NCBI GenBank assembly: GCA_016285265.1
Contig: JAEEQL010000004.1
Span: 1-58,031 of the forward strand
Reading direction: 5' to 3'
Source: Lachnospiraceae bacterium
GTDB taxonomy: Bacteria > Bacillota > Clostridia > Lachnospirales > Lachnospiraceae
DNA length: 58,031 bases
The notes under the pieces: generated by a model
What the model saw: the letters and a program-made list of their open reading frames with translations, nothing else
Told to the model about the DNA's origin: nothing
Databases searched by the model: none
Shown: piece by piece, positions 13,138-22,076 of the stretch
Layout of the letters: the number at the start of each line of letters is the position of its first letter
Numbering within the stretch: the stretch's first letter is position 1
Translations under genes and position numbers: made by a program

Positions 13138-13797
13138 TCAGTCCATCTTCCAGTTTTTGAATTCCTTCTTTTCGCCTCTCCAGTATGCGGTGAAATCATC
13201 CCTCGTTCCGTGGAAGAACAATCCTTCCGTAAATCCGCACCAGTTCTCGCCTTCGAGTCCCGTCTTAAGACCGAACAATGCGCTTGCAAGTATGACCACA
13301 TGTCCGTCGTGAGAGCAGATGATATCGAGCTTTCCGTCGGATGACGGGATATCGAATATTGCATTCAGTATCGGAAGAGCTGCCTGATCCAGTGTGTAAC
13401 CCGCGGTATATTCGGGAATACCGTTCTGGAGTCCGTAGTAGAATTTGTACCAGCCTATTCCCTGCTCCTGTGCGGGGCCGAGTCCTTCGATATGTGCAAA
13501 GGCCTGAACCCTTTCAATCCCGGGCTCTTCTATTCCCATTCCCCTTGCGACCTCGGCAGCTGTCTGGACACACCTTTTAACGGGACTTGCATAAAACCTT
13601 CCGACCGGAACATCGAGATTCCTTCCGATCCGGTTTGCGATCTCGATGCCCTCCGGCGTAAGGAGCAGATCCGAATAATCACCGTCTACGGGATTGTCAA
13701 ACCTGATGGAATGCCTCATATAAACCTTTACATTGGTATCCTTGGGAAGTTTGAGAGCATCCTCCTTCATAAGAGGACAGATCGAATCAAAGATCAT
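13138..13797 (-). CDS. Histidine phosphatase family protein
   Basis: VYMRHSIRFDN, RFYASPVKRCVQTAAEVA, CSHDGHV. Confidence 0.8.
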   Translation of the reverse strand: MIFDSICPLMKEDALKLPKDTNVKVYMRHSIRFDNPVDGDYSDLLLTPEGIEIANRIGRNLDVPVGRFYASPVKRCVQTAAEVARGMGIEEPGIERVQAFAHIEGLGPAQEQGIGWYKFYYGLQNGIPEYTAGYTLDQAALPILNAIFDIPSSDGKLDIICSHDGHVVILASALFGLKTGLEGENWCGFTEGLFFHGTRDDFTAYWRGEKKEFKNWKMD

Positions 13798-15377
13798 TTT
13801 ACTTTTCTCCGGCTTTTTATTTTGCTTTGTTTCTTATCTGATGATAATACATCGGCGGAAAAATCAGAACCGTTTTTTTCTTTTCCTGCCCTGATGAGCG
13901 GAAGATGAAGTGTCACGCAGGTTCCTTTGTTCACATCGGATTCGATATCCATACCGTAGTTTTCGCCGAAAAGCACCTCGATCCTTTTTCTTACATTAGC
14001 CAGCGCTATGTGATCAAGACTTCCGCGCTCCGTACCTTCCCCGCTTTCCGTTTCGTTTCTTAACTTTTCCAGTTCACCGGCATCCATTCCCTTTCCGTTA
14101 TCGGTGATCGTTATGAACAGGTCTTCATTCTCCGGGCGGGCATCTATCTCCAGATTTCCGCCCTCTGCGGAAAGTCCGTGCATGATCGCGTTTTCGACAA
14201 TGGGCTGGATCAGCATCCTCGGTATGAGTATATCGCTGAAGGAATCATCTTCCCCGAAGCATACATTTATCATATCGGGGTATCTTGCCTGCATTATCTC
14301 CGTATACTGCTTCAGAACATACAATTCCTCAAGAAGGGAAATGTACTCATCCGAGGCATTGGCATATCTTAATAGGACGGAGAGTTCTGTGCAGATCCTC
14401 GCGGCCGTTTCCCTGTCACCCTTTCCTATAAGCGCCCTTACGATGTTCAGCGTGTTGACCGTAAAATGTGCGCTTATCTGTTTTTTCAAAAGAGTGAGGT
14501 TGGTTCTTTCAAGTTCAAGATCGATGCTTGTCCTTATGAACCTTCTCATGACCATTTCAAAAATAAATGCGGCGATAACGAGTATCAGGATCGTTACCGG
14601 AAGTGCGATGGTGAAAAAGCGGGAGACATCCTTCGAAACTGAATCTACGCAGTACACAACAACCCTGTATCCGGTAAAGCCGATAAACCTCTCGCTTACA
14701 TAGATTGCTTCGGAAAGTCTGCTTTCCACATCCTCCTTGCCGATCCCGCCTCCCGCGCAGATGAGCCTGTCTTCGTAGTAGAGCGCCGCACCTATATAGT
14801 CCGGATCGTTATATGTCGAGAGAAGCTTTTCCACCTTTCTCTGGTCGATCAAAAGAAGAACATAGCCGGTGATCTTGTTTTCATTTTCTATGACACGGTA
14901 TATACCGACATAATTATCCGAGCCCGAGGATACCGAAACCATCCGGTCGCTCTTTCCTTCACTGATGATATGGAAGGAGCTGACAGCTATCGTGTTCGGC
15001 GCAGTCCCTTTAAGCCTGTAAAAATCCCCGTCCGTATTATATACGATAACGTTGTCGGCATTTACAACGCTTTTGAGAACGGGAGCAAGAACATCCTGTG
15101 TGGCACGTCCCATGGCATAGAAATCTTCTCCGAAGTCCAGTGCCGACAGTTTTTTCACGCTCTCATCAATGGCAAGGATCGACGAGCATTCTTCCATCAT
15201 GACAAGTTCGTTTCCGACATCGTTCATAATGGTTCCGACTGCGCTCATCGCATGACGTTCCATATTCTGCCTGATGATCCTGACCGTGAGCTGATAAAAC
15301 ACTACCCAGAGCAGTACTATCCCCGCTCCGAACAGCATCACTCCGATCGTTCTCTTTTTTCCGGAATATTTATACAC
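13794..15377 (-). CDS. Sensor histidine kinase, YesM/LytS (His_kinase) type
   Basis: LLKKQISAHFTVNTLNIVRAL, IPRMLIQPIVENAIMHGL, ITDNGKGM; N-terminal TM and extracellular sensor; 4-nt ATGA overlap with the phosphatase gene. Confidence 0.9.
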   Translation of the reverse strand: MYKYSGKKRTIGVMLFGAGIVLLWVVFYQLTVRIIRQNMERHAMSAVGTIMNDVGNELVMMEECSSILAIDESVKKLSALDFGEDFYAMGRATQDVLAPVLKSVVNADNVIVYNTDGDFYRLKGTAPNTIAVSSFHIISEGKSDRMVSVSSGSDNYVGIYRVIENENKITGYVLLLIDQRKVEKLLSTYNDPDYIGAALYYEDRLICAGGGIGKEDVESRLSEAIYVSERFIGFTGYRVVVYCVDSVSKDVSRFFTIALPVTILILVIAAFIFEMVMRRFIRTSIDLELERTNLTLLKKQISAHFTVNTLNIVRALIGKGDRETAARICTELSVLLRYANASDEYISLLEELYVLKQYTEIMQARYPDMINVCFGEDDSFSDILIPRMLIQPIVENAIMHGLSAEGGNLEIDARPENEDLFITITDNGKGMDAGELEKLRNETESGEGTERGSLDHIALANVRKRIEVLFGENYGMDIESDVNKGTCVTLHLPLIRAGKEKNGSDFSADVLSSDKKQSKIKSRRKVK

Positions 15378-15410
15378 GCTTCAGATTCCAGTACACCATT
15401 CCAAAAGTTT

Positions 15411-16817
15411 TCAATGCAGGATTTCCTCCGCCCCCGAAACATATTCTGTCCAGATGCTGTCGCTCAGAATATCCTCTTCACCCGATACGAATGCGATCAT
15501 ATGACGGTCAAGATACTCCGAAAGCTCCGCATTTCTTGCGGGAAGCTCCCCGTCCGGCTCCGCAAAGCAGCCAATATATGCCATCTGCGCTCTCGCATCA
15601 ACATACTCTGCATCGGAATCAGGTCCGTTCCACGTAACACCGTAAATGTATTTTTCGGGTACCGCCATAGGACCGACACCGTTCAGATTCTTATTCTGTA
15701 CGGCATCGCGGATGTAATTCTTTACAGTGACAGTGGAAGGAGTCATGTAAATGCTTATGTCCTTTCCGTCCGAATAATCCCAGTCGACTCCGGGTTCTCC
15801 GAATCTTGCGATGAGCGATGCTTCTTCGCTCATCATTGTATCCAGCAGAAGCTGTGCGGCTTCCTTCCTTTCGCTCCGTGACAGGATTATCGCTCCGATC
15901 TTTGTTTTGTTTTCGGGGATCATGGCATAGGATATTCCGTTCGGACCGGCAAGCGGAGGAACATACACATACCTGTCCATCACTTCGGGATTTCCGCGGT
16001 ATATGACATCACAGATCGAAGAAGAAGTGAATGCTCCGACTATCGGTAACGGACTGTTTACCATTTCACTCAGCTGTGCATGGGAACAGTCGAAAATTCC
16101 TTTATCCATAAGTCCCTTTTCATACAGTCCGTTACAGTACTCAAGCCCGTCACGGTACGCGGGATCCGCCCATATGCCCTTTCCGTCCGCGGTCATTCTT
16201 GAATGATACGGATCGTTGACGGCAAAGGAACCCATGAGGAATTCCATGGGATTTAAGTCATATTCATCGGCAGAACCCGCAAGCGGTATCTCGTCACGGA
16301 TACCGTTTCCGTTGGGATCTCCGGTTTTAAACGCTTCAAGCACAGCCTCGAATTCCCCGGTGGTTTCGGGGATCTCCATCCCCAGGTTCACCAGCCATTC
16401 TTTGTTTATCCACAGTACCGTTCCCGCACCGGCAGGAGCATCCCAGCCTTCCGACACATATTTAAACTCCCCGTCCGGAAGATAAATATCTCCGCTTGAT
16501 ACATATCCTTCCAGGACTCCGTCACCCGGAACAAAGCTCCCGCCGAACAGCACGACATCGATCTCCGCCCTTGAATCAAAAAGCACTTTAAGATATTCGT
16601 CGCAGCTTTCTATCTTGACGAATGAAACGACTATATCGATCCCCGTCTTTTCCTCAAGATAGTTTATGTAATAATTTGTATCGATATCGGGAATGTTGTC
16701 GGAATAAGGAATCGCGACATTCAAGATCTCGGGCTGCGGTCCGAAACCGCAGCCCGGTATATACAGAAGAGATATTGCAAGAAAAATTGTCAGAAGCTTA
16801 CAGATCTTCCTGTTCAC
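15411..16817 (-). CDS. Extracellular solute-binding lipoprotein (family 1-like)
   Basis: Signal peptide with lipobox YIPGC; DPNGNGIRDEIPLAG typical of clostridial sugar-binding proteins. Confidence 0.85.
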   Translation of the reverse strand: MNRKICKLLTIFLAISLLYIPGCGFGPQPEILNVAIPYSDNIPDIDTNYYINYLEEKTGIDIVVSFVKIESCDEYLKVLFDSRAEIDVVLFGGSFVPGDGVLEGYVSSGDIYLPDGEFKYVSEGWDAPAGAGTVLWINKEWLVNLGMEIPETTGEFEAVLEAFKTGDPNGNGIRDEIPLAGSADEYDLNPMEFLMGSFAVNDPYHSRMTADGKGIWADPAYRDGLEYCNGLYEKGLMDKGIFDCSHAQLSEMVNSPLPIVGAFTSSSICDVIYRGNPEVMDRYVYVPPLAGPNGISYAMIPENKTKIGAIILSRSERKEAAQLLLDTMMSEEASLIARFGEPGVDWDYSDGKDISIYMTPSTVTVKNYIRDAVQNKNLNGVGPMAVPEKYIYGVTWNGPDSDAEYVDARAQMAYIGCFAEPDGELPARNAELSEYLDRHMIAFVSGEEDILSDSIWTEYVSGAEEILH

Positions 16818-17535
16818 CGGGACTCCTCATCTCTTTCGGAGAAACTCCGTAATAATTCTTGAACACTTTGAAAAAATGATAATAGTCGGTGTAGCCGCAC
16901 CTGACACCGATCTGCTTTATCAGAAGAGTCTTATCTTCAATCAGTTCTCCCGCATACTTCATTCTTTTTTCCGTAAGATACATGCTGAGGGACTGGTTGT
17001 AATATTTCTGGAAAAGTGCACAGATATAATTTCTGCTGAATCCGAATTTCTCGGCAAGCATAGACAGGGTTATCTTCTCCCTGAAATTCTCATCGACATA
17101 CTGAACAAGGCTGTTAAAGCCGGGATTGTCCGTTACGCTTCCGCCTTCGGCTGACCTGTTTTTGGACAGCACCGAATTTAGTTTTTCGAGTACGATGCGG
17201 ACATCATCGATATCGACGGGCTTAAGAATATAATCAAAACCGCTCTGCCGGTAAAATGTACGTACATTTTCAAAATCGTCATATGCGGAGATCACAACGA
17301 ACTCCGCTTTGCAGCCGCTCTCCCTTAGCTTTGAGATCAGCTCGTTTCCGTTCATCTTGGGCATCTTCATATCACAGAACACCGCATCGGCATCAAGCTC
17401 TGTGATCTCTTCTATCGCCTTTTCGGGATCGGTATTGCTTCCTATGACCTCAAAACCATTCTCCATCCAGGGAATGATCTCCGTCAGTTCCTCCAATATG
17501 AAACGATCGTCATCGACCAGATATGCCCTGTACAT
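16798..17535 (-). CDS. Response regulator with AraC-type DNA-binding domain (YesN-like)
   Basis: REC domain MYRAYLVDDDRFILEEL...DAVFCDMKMPKMNG; C-terminal AraC HTH. Confidence 0.93.
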   Translation of the reverse strand: MYRAYLVDDDRFILEELTEIIPWMENGFEVIGSNTDPEKAIEEITELDADAVFCDMKMPKMNGNELISKLRESGCKAEFVVISAYDDFENVRTFYRQSGFDYILKPVDIDDVRIVLEKLNSVLSKNRSAEGGSVTDNPGFNSLVQYVDENFREKITLSMLAEKFGFSRNYICALFQKYYNQSLSMYLTEKRMKYAGELIEDKTLLIKQIGVRCGYTDYYHFFKVFKNYYGVSPKEMRSPGEQEDL

Positions 17536-17669
17536 ATACTCCCCCCCAAAAGCTTATTTTGTTAGATTTTATCATATTTCCGTACATTTTCGAAATACAT
17601 GGGATCAAACAGGTGCAAAAGGACAAAAAAATGGATAAAATACGCGAAATACAGTAAAATAACCTATGT

Positions 17670-18854
17670 ATGGGCAGTTTTAAAGAAGACCAAAACCACA
17701 TACCCGTAACAAAAGAAAAAAAGAGCCTTGTTCAGAGGTTAAGGGATTCGCACATCGCGATGATCATATTCATCCTGACAGTGGTTCTTTTGGTCTGTTA
17801 TGCATGTTATGAACTCGGCGGGGCAAGGGAAGAAGGACTTACCTTCATCGATGTCATCATATACAACCTGCTCGCCCTCGCCGGTAACGACTACGAATTT
17901 ACCGGAACTCCGGGAGGAAGGATACTCGGACTCATAGTCCTCTCACTGGGAGTCCTCGGGCTTTCAACCATCACAGGTTACATCTCATCCGCCCTCGTGG
18001 CCAGCAAACTGAATGCGGAAAGAGGAATCAGAAAAATGCAGAATATGAAAGATCACATCATCGTATGCGGCTGGAAAAACGACATAAAGAGCCTCATCAC
18101 CGGAATCCTCCGCAAGAACAGGAATCTCTCCGTATCGGACATCATCCTCATAACGGGAGCCGATGATGTCAAGGTCCAGGCTCTCAAAGACGATCCCGTT
18201 CTCAAGGGGCTCAACCTTCTTAAAGGGGACTTCACCGAGGAGCAGACTCTCAAAAATGCCGCCATCGGTTCAGCCGCCAAGGTCCTGATCGTCGGAGAAA
18301 ACGGGGACAACCTCGATGATGAGCTGATCGACTCAAGAGTATTCGTCACCGCACTTCTTGCAAGAAATCTCAATTCCAAATGTCATATCTGCGCCCAGAT
18401 CCGAACGGAGCGCTATCGCAACTATCTCGAAGCACAGGGGTGTGCGGAGATCATCTACACCGAAGAATACACAAGACACATACTCACAACATCAACAAAT
18501 TACAGCGGAATGAGCAAGGTCATGAGCTCGCTCCTCGATAACGGCGACGGCATCTCCGTCCAGATAGAGCCCGTAACCGAAAAGTGGATCGGCAGGAAAT
18601 ATTCCGAACTCTTCGACAGCTACAAGAAGGAAAAGAATATCCTTCTCCTCGGCATTCTCGAGAACATGGGTGTTGAAAAAGAGATCAAGCACAGCATACT
18701 TTCCGAAGCACAGAAATCTACCAATTACGGTGAGATCATACAGCGTCTCAAGACCGTTAAGACAATGGAAACAAATAAACCGCTCCTCAATCCCGGCGAC
18801 GATTATGTGATCCCCGCCAATTCCGGAGCGATAATACTCGGAGTGGAGGTCTGA
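17670..18854 (+). CDS. Two-TM ion channel with TrkA-N/RCK domain and non-canonical filter
   Basis: TM1-pore-TM2 ...NLLALAGNDYEFTGTPGGRILGLIVLSLGVLGLSTITGYI..., then RCK DHIIVCGWKNDIKSLI. Confidence 0.85.
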   Translation: MGSFKEDQNHIPVTKEKKSLVQRLRDSHIAMIIFILTVVLLVCYACYELGGAREEGLTFIDVIIYNLLALAGNDYEFTGTPGGRILGLIVLSLGVLGLSTITGYISSALVASKLNAERGIRKMQNMKDHIIVCGWKNDIKSLITGILRKNRNLSVSDIILITGADDVKVQALKDDPVLKGLNLLKGDFTEEQTLKNAAIGSAAKVLIVGENGDNLDDELIDSRVFVTALLARNLNSKCHICAQIRTERYRNYLEAQGCAEIIYTEEYTRHILTTSTNYSGMSKVMSSLLDNGDGISVQIEPVTEKWIGRKYSELFDSYKKEKNILLLGILENMGVEKEIKHSILSEAQKSTNYGEIIQRLKTVKTMETNKPLLNPGDDYVIPANSGAIILGVEV

Positions 18855-19336
18855 TGGAATACACGGATAAACTGAAACAGTTCCCTCTTTTCAATTCCCT
18901 GTCGGAAAAGGACCTTGAGGATTTCGCATCGCTTTTGAAGGTATCGAAGGCATCCGCGGGAGAAAACATCATAACCGAAGGCGCGACGGGAAACGATATG
19001 TATTTCCTTATCGACGGAAGCGTCGACATCATCAAGACAACCGTCTTCGGCGACAAATTCGTATGCGCGAGCCTCGACAGTGCGATGCACTGCGTGTTCG
19101 GTGAGATGGCACTCATCGACAGCGACACAAGATCGGCTACCGTGAAGGCAAGAACCGACTGCGTATCCCTCAGCATATCCAAAAAGGATTTCGATGCATT
19201 TGCGGATTCCCATCCGGCTGCGGGAGTATCGCTCCTTCGCTTCATCGGGATCAATCTTGTCCGCAACATCCGGAAAGAGAACGAGAACCTGAACCTGGTC
19301 TACCAGGCGCTTATAGAAGAGATAGAATCAAACTGA
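18854..19336 (+). CDS. Cyclic nucleotide-binding domain protein, no DNA-binding domain
   Basis: GENIITEGATGNDMYFLIDGSVDI...FGEMALIDSDTRSATVKARTD; start codon overlaps channel stop (TGATG). Confidence 0.85.
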   Translation: MEYTDKLKQFPLFNSLSEKDLEDFASLLKVSKASAGENIITEGATGNDMYFLIDGSVDIIKTTVFGDKFVCASLDSAMHCVFGEMALIDSDTRSATVKARTDCVSLSISKKDFDAFADSHPAAGVSLLRFIGINLVRNIRKENENLNLVYQALIEEIESN

Positions 19337-19365
19337 TCATTATTCTTACAGGAGTTACGAAAGCC

Positions 19366-21846
19366 ATGTACAGAACAGACGAACTGCTTTTGATCGAACA
19401 TCTTACCTATATTCCCGACATTCCGCCATTCTTCTCCATCCTTAAGGGAGAAGGAATGACCGTGGGCGATTTCCTTGCAAAGACCGATATGGACGCACTC
19501 GATCCGGAAGTCACATACACAACGCAGATGAACGGAACAGATTTCCGTAACGTCTTCCTTGCAATGAAGAAGAACTCCTCGATCACAAACGCGAAGATTG
19601 CGGAAGCTCATCTCGACAACGCGTTCGGTGCGGGCGGCGGAATATCCATAGTCTTGATCAACGAATCGGATGAACCCGGAGAAAACGGCAAGCATGAAGC
19701 CGTCGTCGCATTCAGGGGAACCGCAGAGAACGAATGGACCGACGATTTCGAGGGTGCGGGACAGGTGGACTCCCTCCAGCAGATCAATGCTCTCGAATGG
19801 TACAAGCAGGTCTACGAAAAGTACGAGCTCGAAAAGTACAATGTCACCGTCATCGGCCACTCCAAGGGCGGTAACAAAGCAAAGTACATCACAATACTGA
19901 ACGACACTCCCTTCCGCTGTGTTTCCTTTGACGGACAGGGCTTTTCCGATAAGTTCATCGATCACTACCGCAAGCGTATCATCGCACGTCAGGGCATAAT
20001 CGAAAACCACAACATCGATTTCGACTATGTAAACATCCTGATGAACGATATCGGTGAAAAGACATATTACATCGGCTACGATTACGGAAAATTCGGATTC
20101 ACCGAATCGCACGCTCCCAACACTTTCTTCGATTTCGGCGAAAACGGTGAATACAATATCCGCGTCAATCCCGGCGGACAGCGCCCCGAGATGCAGATCA
20201 TCGACCAGTTCATAAACAGCATGATCCGCTCCGCCGTCAGTGAAAAGGAAAGCTCAGAAACAAACCACCTTGTCGGAATGCTGGTCGAAAAGGCATTCTC
20301 ACTGTCAAGCGGCTGCGATGTTTCGGAATTCATCACATTCCTCTGCGATATGATCGGAGATCCCAAATATTCCGACAATGTCGCATACCTTCTTGCGTAC
20401 TGCATCCTTTACTCACGCAAGAATCCCGATCTCCTCAAATCGATGAGGAGCATCATGACCGCATTCAGGGCTGACGGTGTTCTTAAGATAATCGACATGG
20501 TCGACGACCTTGTAACCTCCAAAAAGCTCAACGCTCTTCTCGGTGTTACCGATTTCCTTGTCGTTCACGTCAACCGCCCCATCACCAAGAGCATCCGGTC
20601 CTTCGCAAAAAAGAAATACGATGTCGACCTTAAGCCCGATCAGGTAAGCAGCATACTGCGTATCGCTTCACTTACAAGGCAGATGGTGCACTCTCTGGAA
20701 CTCAACATGGACGGATCCGATCTCGTCGTCGAAGAGGTACGCCTTTCGGAGGACGATCTCAGGGAATTTGTTCTTCCCGGAAATCTCAACATAGTGGTTC
20801 TCGCAGGCGGTCTTTCCAACGAAAGAAACCTTTCGCTCAAGACCGGGGTTACGGTTGCGGACATTTTAAGGGGCAGGGGAAACAGCGTAATACTTCTCGA
20901 TGCATTCATGGGTTACGGAGACACGGAAGAGCTTCTTCCCGACAATGTATTCGAAGCTCCCTTCAAATATTCACTCTCACCCGGCGATATCCCCGATGAG
21001 ATACCCGATCTGTGGGCTACAAGAAAACGCCGTCCCGACCAGTCGGGTGCATACTTCGGACCTAATGTGCTCCAGATCTGCAGACAGTCCGACCTCATCT
21101 TCGTCGCACTTCACGGAGCTAACGGTGAGAACGGCAAGGTCCAGGCCGCATTCGACCTTCTCGGTCTCGACTACACCGGATGCGATTACTTCTCATCCGC
21201 AATATCATCCAACAAGGCTGCGGCAAAGCAGCTCATGCAGACCCTCGGAGTTCCGGTGCCGAGCGGATATACCATCAAGAAGGCATCCGACATACCCGAT
21301 CCTGCGACCATGGGACTTAAGCTTCCCGTTATCGTAAAGCCCAATAACGGAGGAATCGGCGTTGGAATTTCCGTAGCTACAGACCTGACCGCATATGAGA
21401 AAGCCGTAAGAGCCGCATTCAGATGGGATACCGAGATCCTCGTCGAGGAATACTTCCCCGGACGTGAATTTGCCGTATGCACGATCGAAGGAAAGGCACT
21501 TCCCGTCCTTGAAAAGCTCCCCATGGAGACAAGCGACAGGGAAAAAGGCCTTACGCTTTCCGGAAAAACAATCAACAAATGTCCCGCAGACATCCCCGAA
21601 GAGCTTGCAAAGGCACTTCAAAAATCGGCAGAGGATGCCGCATTTGCTCTCGGCGTAAACGCATATGCGAAATTTGACTTCATTGTGGGACAGGACGGAA
21701 AATCCTTCGTCTGCCTCGAGTGCGACTCGCTGCCGCAGCTCTATCCCGATTCGGACCTCGTCATTTCGGCCAAAGCGGCGGGAAGAAGCTTCGGAGATCT
21801 GTGTGACAAGATCATGGAGATCAGCCTGGTAGGCAAGTCAAACTGA
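19366..21846 (+). CDS. Fusion protein: N-terminal Mbeg1/DUF2974-like lipase-fold hydrolase and C-terminal D-Ala-D-Ala-ligase-like ATP-grasp domain
   Basis: N-term AFRGTAENEWTDDFEGA, VTVIGHSKGGNKAKY; C-term VVLAGGLSNERNLSLKTG, LPVIVKPNNGGIGVGIS, LECDSLPQLYPDSDLVISAKAAG. Confidence 0.85.
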   Translation: MYRTDELLLIEHLTYIPDIPPFFSILKGEGMTVGDFLAKTDMDALDPEVTYTTQMNGTDFRNVFLAMKKNSSITNAKIAEAHLDNAFGAGGGISIVLINESDEPGENGKHEAVVAFRGTAENEWTDDFEGAGQVDSLQQINALEWYKQVYEKYELEKYNVTVIGHSKGGNKAKYITILNDTPFRCVSFDGQGFSDKFIDHYRKRIIARQGIIENHNIDFDYVNILMNDIGEKTYYIGYDYGKFGFTESHAPNTFFDFGENGEYNIRVNPGGQRPEMQIIDQFINSMIRSAVSEKESSETNHLVGMLVEKAFSLSSGCDVSEFITFLCDMIGDPKYSDNVAYLLAYCILYSRKNPDLLKSMRSIMTAFRADGVLKIIDMVDDLVTSKKLNALLGVTDFLVVHVNRPITKSIRSFAKKKYDVDLKPDQVSSILRIASLTRQMVHSLELNMDGSDLVVEEVRLSEDDLREFVLPGNLNIVVLAGGLSNERNLSLKTGVTVADILRGRGNSVILLDAFMGYGDTEELLPDNVFEAPFKYSLSPGDIPDEIPDLWATRKRRPDQSGAYFGPNVLQICRQSDLIFVALHGANGENGKVQAAFDLLGLDYTGCDYFSSAISSNKAAAKQLMQTLGVPVPSGYTIKKASDIPDPATMGLKLPVIVKPNNGGIGVGISVATDLTAYEKAVRAAFRWDTEILVEEYFPGREFAVCTIEGKALPVLEKLPMETSDREKGLTLSGKTINKCPADIPEELAKALQKSAEDAAFALGVNAYAKFDFIVGQDGKSFVCLECDSLPQLYPDSDLVISAKAAGRSFGDLCDKIMEISLVGKSN

Positions 21847-21906
21847 CATCGAGGATCCGTGGACGGTGTAAGTCCGGCTCCCGGAACATAAATGACATAC
21901 TTTCAA

Positions 21907-21941
21907 CAGGACCCGTCTGATAAAGGCGGGTCCTGTTTTTT
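21907..21941 (+). terminator. Rho-independent terminator
   Basis: CAGGACCCG...CGGGTCCTG followed by TTTTTT. Confidence 0.85.
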
Positions 21942-21992
21942 GCCGTTTTTCGGGCGTTTTCCGGGTTTTTAAAAATTTTTTTGAGATCGGTG

Positions 21993-22021
21993 TTGACAAC
22001 CTACGACTGTCGTAGTATATT
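21993..22021 (+). promoter_or_regulatory. Promoter with operator palindrome filling the spacer (padR operon)
   Basis: TTGACA-N17-TATATT; the last 15 nt of the spacer are the perfect dyad CTACGACTGTCGTAG (22001-22015). Confidence 0.85.
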
Positions 22022-22029
22022 TACCGCAT

Positions 22030-22076
22030 CAGACATAGTACGACTGTCGTAGTACGGCAGACATAGTACGTCTGAC
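22030..22076 (+). promoter_or_regulatory. Secondary operator cluster
   Basis: TACGACTGTCGTA at 22039-22051; direct repeat CAGACATAGTACG at 22030-22042 and 22058-22070. Confidence 0.65.

What the first reader, a model, noticed from the sequence alone, without database searches (positions are those of the whole stretch)
17670..21846. Three-gene operon: unusual channel, standalone cyclic-nucleotide-binding protein, hydrolase/Ddl-like fusion
Seen: same strand; channel stop and CNB start overlap (TGATG at 18852-18856); the third gene begins 29 bp later with its own RBS and ends at a terminator at 21907. Established: CNB domains gate many channels, usually in cis. Inference: the CNB protein is a split gating subunit, and the third protein may be an effector acting on lipid or peptide/cell-wall substrates. 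This is the best candidate in the window for an undescribed system.
Basis: partly seen in the sequence, partly recalled or inferred. Interest (0 to 1): 0.75.

Follow-up and report, generated by a model that had tools for sequence, protein, structure and literature searches.

The report
Conserved cAMP-receptor, ion-channel, lipase-ligase operon
Rumen gut bacteria carry a conserved three-gene unit that probably lets the messenger cAMP control an unusual ion channel through a separate receptor protein, together with an enzyme that joins a toxin-like lipase to a cell-wall-type ligase; no description of such a combination turned up in the literature searched.

Summary
The three genes, the TGATG overlap, the 29-bp gap and the terminator are all real. 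The order channel-CNB-fusion recurs in about 23 loci while flanking genes change, all three genes are under strong purifying selection, and the parts also occur together in Anaeroplasma (another class). The channel is a 2TM-pore-RCK protein (MthK-like) whose TVGYG filter is replaced by xAGNDY, with a near-invariant insertion in the RCK C-lobe. The CNB protein keeps its phosphate-binding cassette and is the only CNB protein above cut-off in its genome, which has exactly one CHASE2 adenylyl cyclase. Cyclases occur in 68 of 397 family genomes but in every channel-bearing lineage examined; two fusion carriers without the channel also lack the cyclase. The third protein joins a hydrolase, 38-39% identical to TslA-like proteins of type VII secretion loci, to a Ddl-derived ATP-grasp domain that has lost D-Ala-binding residues. 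Most likely: a cAMP-responsive channel gated in trans, with the fusion as an intracellular enzyme of unknown substrate. cAMP binding, CNB-channel contact, ion selectivity and enzyme chemistry are inferred, not shown. New variant of a known kind.

The parts
17632..17660 (+). promoter-like -35 TGGATA / -10 TAAAAT, 9 nt upstream of the channel ATG (probably leaderless transcript)
   Evidence: -10 region ATACAGTAAAATA conserved in relatives down to 77-79% channel identity while surrounding upstream DNA diverges
17670..18854 (+). channel, 394 aa: TM1 (res. 29-49), pore helix (59-70), TM2 (81-113), RCK N- and C-lobes
   Evidence: Slo-like_RCK 1.7e-10, TrkA_N 1.6e-7; profile hits BK and MthK; model resembles MthK along its length; low confidence
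17880..17894 (+). selectivity-filter region A71-G72-N73-D74-Y75, in place of VGYGD of the closest canonical relative
   Evidence: G72 and D74 invariant in 16 homologues; canonical relative G620 has TTVGYGD
18660..18731 (+). near-invariant insertion in the RCK C-lobe (ENMGVEKEIKHSILSEAQKSTNYG, res. 331-354); candidate CNB docking site (inferred)
   Evidence: absent from the canonical relative; N332 M333 G334 E336 K340 H341 Q348 S350-I356 invariant
18854..19336 (+). stand-alone cyclic-nucleotide-binding protein, 160 aa
   Evidence: (PF00027 3.1e-17); only CNB protein above the Pfam cut-off in its genome
19094..19144 (+). phosphate-binding cassette VFGEMALIDSDTRSATV (E84 and R93 invariant)
19244..19327 (+). 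conserved C-terminal helical stretch of the CNB protein (INLVRNIRKENENLNLVYQALIEEIE)
   Evidence: 18 invariant columns in this stretch
19366..21846 (+). fusion protein, 826 aa
   Evidence: relatives in 30 loci
19366..20760 (+). hydrolase half with helical middle region (res. 1-465); GHSKGG nucleophile S166 at 19861-19863
   Evidence: Mbeg1-like 5.3e-9; 38-39% identical to hydrolases of T7SS-type loci
20773..21843 (+). Ddl-derived ATP-grasp half (res. 470-826)
   Evidence: Ddl fold; D-Ala-binding residues changed
21905..21942 (+). intrinsic terminator
   Evidence: -26.2 kcal/mol, z -6.9, U6 tail

Best explanation
A cAMP-responsive ion-channel module in which the cyclic-nucleotide sensor works in trans. 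An envelope sensor elsewhere in the genome (FecR protein beside a CHASE2 adenylyl cyclase) makes cAMP. The CNB protein, the only predicted cAMP receptor of the cell, binds cAMP and docks on the RCK ring of the channel, perhaps through its conserved C-terminal helix and the channel's near-invariant RCK insertion, and so opens or closes it. The filter is not that of a K+ channel; a permissive or divalent-preferring cation pore is likely. The fusion is an intracellular enzyme made from the same transcript: a TslA-like lipase domain whose C-terminal helical tail has been replaced by a Ddl-derived ATP-grasp domain; it probably makes and breaks an acyl or amide bond on a lipid or peptide in response to the same signal. 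Shown: gene order, conservation, selection, cassette and catalytic residues, co-occurrence, homologies. Inferred: cAMP binding, CNB-channel contact, direction of gating, ion, enzyme substrate, co-transcription.
For: Conserved three-gene order with changing flanks. Coupled channel/CNB genes (TGATG or ATGA in most loci, Anaeroplasma L133 included) and correlated divergence, r 0.93-0.96. Intact FGE...R cassette. One cyclase and one CNB protein above cut-off in G000 and in its 99%-complete sister G116. The cyclases carry metal-binding, K/D adenine-specificity and N/R catalytic motifs and CHASE2, with a FecR protein as neighbour. Cyclase background 68/397 against 16 of 18 fusion-bearing genomes; the two without it also lack the channel. 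In Anaeroplasma the channel-CNB pair, the fusion and the cyclase are all kept although at three separate loci. A TIM-barrel gene sits beside channel-CNB in G320 and Anaeroplasma and beside the cyclase in other carriers. In G320 the cyclase is about 4 kb upstream of channel-CNB on the same strand. Filter and RCK insertion. Hydrolase and ligase relatives.
Against: No binding, contact or current was measured. The cyclase also occurs in genus members without the channel, so cAMP has other uses; one channel-bearing genus genome (G411, 83% complete) shows no cyclase. Within the genus co-occurrence is phylogenetically dependent; only about six lineages are independent and several genomes are incomplete. 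Fusion exists without the channel (L037, L038) and channel-CNB without the fusion (G320). In L017 the channel has lost its first 310 residues while CNB and fusion stay open, and in G418 the channel lies in two frames, unless these are assembly faults. The channel model has low confidence (pLDDT 65).
Confidence: 0.5

Rival explanations
1. The CNB protein gates or chaperones the channel but answers to another ligand (cGMP, another cyclic nucleotide or none), and the channel is governed mainly by its RCK domain (Ca2+, nucleotide or c-di-AMP).
For: RCK domains bind many ligands (general knowledge); the cyclase is also present in genomes without the channel.
Against: Intact, invariant E84/R93 cassette; K/D adenylyl-specificity residues in the single cyclase; lineage-level co-occurrence.
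Confidence: 0.2
2. The CNB protein regulates the enzyme (fusion), not the channel; the channel is a separate sensor or ion-balance part in the same operon.
For: CNB and fusion genes are adjacent; L017 keeps CNB and fusion with a broken channel.
Against: In Anaeroplasma and G320 the CNB gene stays with the channel and is separated from, or lacks, the fusion; channel-CNB is the tighter pair.
Confidence: 0.12
3. A cyclic-nucleotide-triggered defence (Pycsar-like) or toxin module: the hydrolase is a membrane-damaging effector and the channel depolarises the cell.
For: CNB protein resembles CNB domains of PycTIR; the hydrolase half is related to hydrolases of T7SS-type loci, and DUF2974/lipase domains occur among antibacterial effectors.
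Against: No Pycsar cyclase was seen among the neighbouring genes examined; the cyclase is a CHASE2 enzyme elsewhere; no phage match for the channel and no full-length plasmid match for the fusion; strong purifying selection.
Confidence: 0.1
4. Three unrelated housekeeping genes that merely share a transcript.
For: Fusion and channel-CNB can be separated.
Against: Order held while flanks change; the parts are kept together in a distant class.
Confidence: 0.08

Closest known systems
MthK / Slo-type RCK-gated channels
   Same: 2TM-pore followed by an RCK; best PDB profile hits are BK (5e-7) and MthK (9e-6); Foldseek top hits are MthK along the full length
   Different: TVGYG filter replaced by xAGNDY; near-invariant insertion in the RCK C-lobe; a separate CNB protein is coded in the same operon
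Plant CASTOR/POLLUX/DMI1 Ca2+ channels
   Same: RCK channels without TVGYG; filter AD[S/A]GNHA shares the (A)GN core (PMC6697748)
   Different: no Castor_Poll_mid domain; acidic residue two after the Gly rather than two before it; only 394 aa
Prokaryotic cyclic-nucleotide-gated channels (SthK, MloK1)
   Same: cyclic nucleotide expected to gate a tetrameric cation pore; SthK and MloK1 CNB domains match the CNB protein
   Different: there the CNB domain is in cis; here it is a separate protein and the channel has an RCK
TslA (type VII-secreted lipase with reverse domain order) and its immunity lipoprotein TilA
   Same: N-terminal GxSxG hydrolase; T7SS-locus hydrolases 38-39% identical to the hydrolase half, each with an upstream partner homologous to the gene that precedes the fusion in some loci (PMC10730906)
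   Different: C-terminal helical tail replaced by an ATP-grasp domain; no WXG/LXG neighbours seen by the operon; the partner near fusions lacks a lipoprotein signal or is absent
D-Ala-D-Ala ligase (Ddl)
   Same: fold and ATP-grasp core; close to the ddl-murF Ddl of the genus
   Different: D-Ala-binding residues changed; fused to a hydrolase; a canonical Ddl is coded elsewhere in the genome

Membership tests
RCK-gated 2TM channel (MthK/Slo type) | two TM helices with a pore loop, then an RCK domain | tested here: met
Canonical K+ channel | TVGYG-type filter | tested here: not met
   xAGNDY in Lachnospiraceae and Anaeroplasma orthologues, GQDF in G320; closest canonical relative has TVGYGD
CASTOR/POLLUX family | Castor_Poll_mid domain (PF06241) | tested here: not met
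   absent, although present in the long channel of G307
Prokaryotic CNG channel | CNB domain in the channel polypeptide | tested here: not met
   CNB is a separate 160-aa protein
Prokaryotic CNG channel | opening or closing by a cyclic nucleotide | not testable with these tools
   needs flux or patch recording
Cyclic-nucleotide-binding protein | phosphate-binding cassette with Glu and Arg | tested here: met
   E84 and R93 invariant; ligand binding itself not tested
CHASE2 adenylyl cyclase (partner) | metal Asp, adenine-specific Lys/Asp, catalytic Asn/Arg | tested here: met
   CHASE2 by Pfam in the window genome
Ddl (D-Ala-D-Ala ligase) | D-Ala-binding residues (E. coli numbering E15, S150, Y216, R255) | tested here: not met
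   E15 kept in most; S150, Y216 and R255 positions changed; N272 is Asp (role assignment from general knowledge)
TslA-type reverse T7SS lipase | C-terminal helical targeting domain with helical partners and immunity lipoprotein | tested here: not met
   C-terminus is Ddl-like; no such neighbours by the operon
TslA-type reverse T7SS lipase | N-terminal GxSxG lipase domain | tested here: met
   GHSKGG invariant; homology to T7SS-locus hydrolases; lipase activity not testable here
Pycsar defence system | adjacent PycC cyclase with CNB effector | tested here: not met
   no cyclase among the ORFs around the operon or shared flank clusters; CNB protein only matches the CNB domain of Pyc effectors

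The most novel reading that the evidence does not exclude
The first cyclic-nucleotide-gated channel whose cAMP sensor is a detachable subunit, conducting something other than K+, working with a domesticated T7-type lipase that gained an ATP-grasp ligase: a complete bacterial circuit from envelope signal to cAMP to ion flux to lipid or peptide remodelling.
Probability: 0.3. Interest if true: 0.85.

Novelty: new variant of a known kind. Interest (0 to 1): 0.62.

Why it matters
If true, a bacterium uses cAMP not for transcription but to gate a channel through a separable receptor, which would give a minimal system for trans gating and for testing what an xAGND filter conducts. It would also tie an ordinary second messenger to an enzyme that seems to have been assembled from a secreted-lipase domain and a cell-wall ligase, and would assign a role to cAMP in rumen Lachnospiraceae, where one CNB protein and one cyclase make the wiring directly testable.

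Tried and rejected
Plain K+ channel: filter not canonical. CASTOR/POLLUX member: domain absent, acidic residue displaced. Ddl activity: D-Ala-binding residues changed. Distant channel in G620 as an independent test of CNB linkage: it is a canonical TVGYG channel without a CNB neighbour. The 761-aa second CNB hit in the window genome was read and lacks the cassette. Viral-contig scans gave no answer twice, so viral carriage was tested only in the phages and plasmids collections. Literature searches for CHASE2/FecR cyclases and for stand-alone CNB proteins with channels gave no description of this system. The hydrolase half alone was not compared by structure, since Foldseek hits of the whole fusion are dominated by Ddl. 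Rfam: no hit.
Full report
OBSERVATION. Three ORFs on the + strand, 17670-18854, 18854-19336 and 19366-21846. Channel stop and CNB start share TGATG; the fusion starts 29 bp after the CNB stop. A 14-bp stem with a U6 tail follows (21905-21942; -26.2 kcal/mol, z -6.9), while the CNB-fusion gap folds no better than shuffles. A -10 TAAAAT ends 9 nt before the channel ATG and is conserved in relatives whose upstream DNA has diverged, with no Shine-Dalgarno site, so the transcript is probably leaderless.

CONSERVATION. A scan with the fusion found 30 loci in Lachnospiraceae and in Anaeroplasma, an Acholeplasmatales genome and Minthosoma. In about 23 loci, the window included, channel, CNB and fusion follow in the same order, while flanking genes differ outside close relatives. 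dN/dS is 0.01-0.14 for the three genes. Pairwise distances of the three proteins correlate at 0.93-0.96. In Anaeroplasma the channel-CNB pair is still coupled but lies apart from the fusion. For all three proteins the Anaeroplasma versions are closest, or nearly so, to the clade L027/L028/L040, whose loci share with Anaeroplasma a fourth gene just upstream of the fusion. This fits transfer of the module between classes; a tree was not built.

CHANNEL. Slo-like_RCK and TrkA_N. The profile finds BK and MthK, and the low-confidence model matches MthK over its length. The filter is xAGNDY; G72 and D74 are invariant. The closest canonical relative (G620) has TTVGYGD and lacks an insertion, ENMGVEKEIKHSILSEAQKSTNYG, that is near-invariant in this family. 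Plant CASTOR has AD[S/A]GNHA, is Ca2+-selective, and needs its filter Asp (PMC6697748); the resemblance is in AGN only and the Asp is elsewhere. Castor_Poll_mid is absent here but present in a long channel of G307.

CNB PROTEIN AND CYCLASE. The cassette VFGEMA...DTRSATV is intact, with E84 and R93 invariant. In the window genome and in its 99%-complete sister it is the only CNB protein above the Pfam cut-off; a second, weaker hit lacks the cassette. Each of these genomes has one class III cyclase. The window genome's enzyme is a CHASE2 cyclase; cyclases of carriers bear adenylyl-type motifs. The Anaeroplasma and window cyclases sit beside FecR-domain genes (the Anaeroplasma and G320 FecR genes were recognised by eye). 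Cyclases occur in 68 of 397 family genomes, but in 16 of 18 fusion-bearing genomes examined; the two exceptions also lack the channel. If five lineages outside the genus are taken as independent, the chance of all having one at the background rate is about 0.17^5, or 1.4e-4; this is a rough figure, and the Anaeroplasma background was not measured. Within the genus the cyclase also occurs without the channel, and one incomplete genome (G411) has the channel without a cyclase hit. In G320 cyclase and channel-CNB are about 4 kb apart on one strand. A TIM-barrel gene lies beside channel-CNB in G320 and Anaeroplasma and beside the cyclase in other carriers.

FUSION. Residues 1-465: Mbeg1-like hydrolase with GHSKGG. 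Unfused proteins in three genomes are 38-39% identical over this whole part. Their loci carry WXG100 genes in G006 and G166 and an EssC-like gene in G166; for G147 no such neighbour was seen in the piece read. Each has a C-terminal helical tail in place of the Ddl half, and upstream of each lies a gene homologous to the fourth gene (weak for L172). This layout recalls TslA-TilA, a phospholipase A with reverse domain order and an immunity lipoprotein (PMC10730906). Residues 470-826 have the Ddl fold and resemble the ddl-murF Ddl of the genus, which keeps the canonical motifs, but here the residues equivalent to S150, Y216 and R255 are changed. A canonical Ddl exists elsewhere in the genome. So the fusion probably acts on another substrate, and inside the cell, since by eye it has neither an export signal nor the helical tail.

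MECHANISM AND LIMITS. The best reading is a cAMP-responsive channel gated in trans plus a lipid- or peptide-remodelling enzyme. Nothing biochemical was measured. Against: fusion without channel in two lineages, channel-CNB without fusion in G320, a channel remnant in L017 with open CNB and fusion, and a channel in two frames in G418, unless assembly faults. Plasmids gave only partial matches to the fusion, chiefly Ddl genes, and phages none for the channel; viral contigs could not be searched.

Noticed in passing
L170, L171, L172: Hydrolases homologous to the fusion's N-terminal half, with helical C-terminal tails and an upstream partner gene (lipoprotein-like in several); L170 and L171 are in WXG100 loci. 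TslA/TilA-like candidates in Lachnospiraceae.
   Followed up: partly
L132:3837-4625; L133:4865-5638; L134:2494-3261; also L100-L105, L091, L118, L123, L124: AP_endonuc_2 TIM-barrel gene beside channel-CNB in some genomes and beside class III cyclases in others.
   Followed up: partly
L135 (G307): Tandem-CNB protein gene overlapping a class III cyclase gene, with a Castor_Poll_mid channel and a sugar ABC system nearby.
   Followed up: no
L017:4798-5480; G418:C27:35113-36187: Channel missing its first 310 residues (L017) or lying in two frames (G418) while CNB and fusion are open; real decay or assembly faults.
   Followed up: partly
L028:5285-5980, L041:5274-5984: Uncharacterised fourth gene just upstream of the fusion in some loci; no Pfam or NCBIfam match; not found in the window.
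   Followed up: partly
window 22001-22060: Repeated ACGACTGTCGTAGTA-like palindrome before a PadR-type gene (22168); likely operator of the next operon.
   Followed up: no
window 13794-17535: Divergent response regulator with AraC-type domain, histidine kinase and a lipoprotein resembling a sugar-binding protein on the - strand (read by eye).
   Followed up: no
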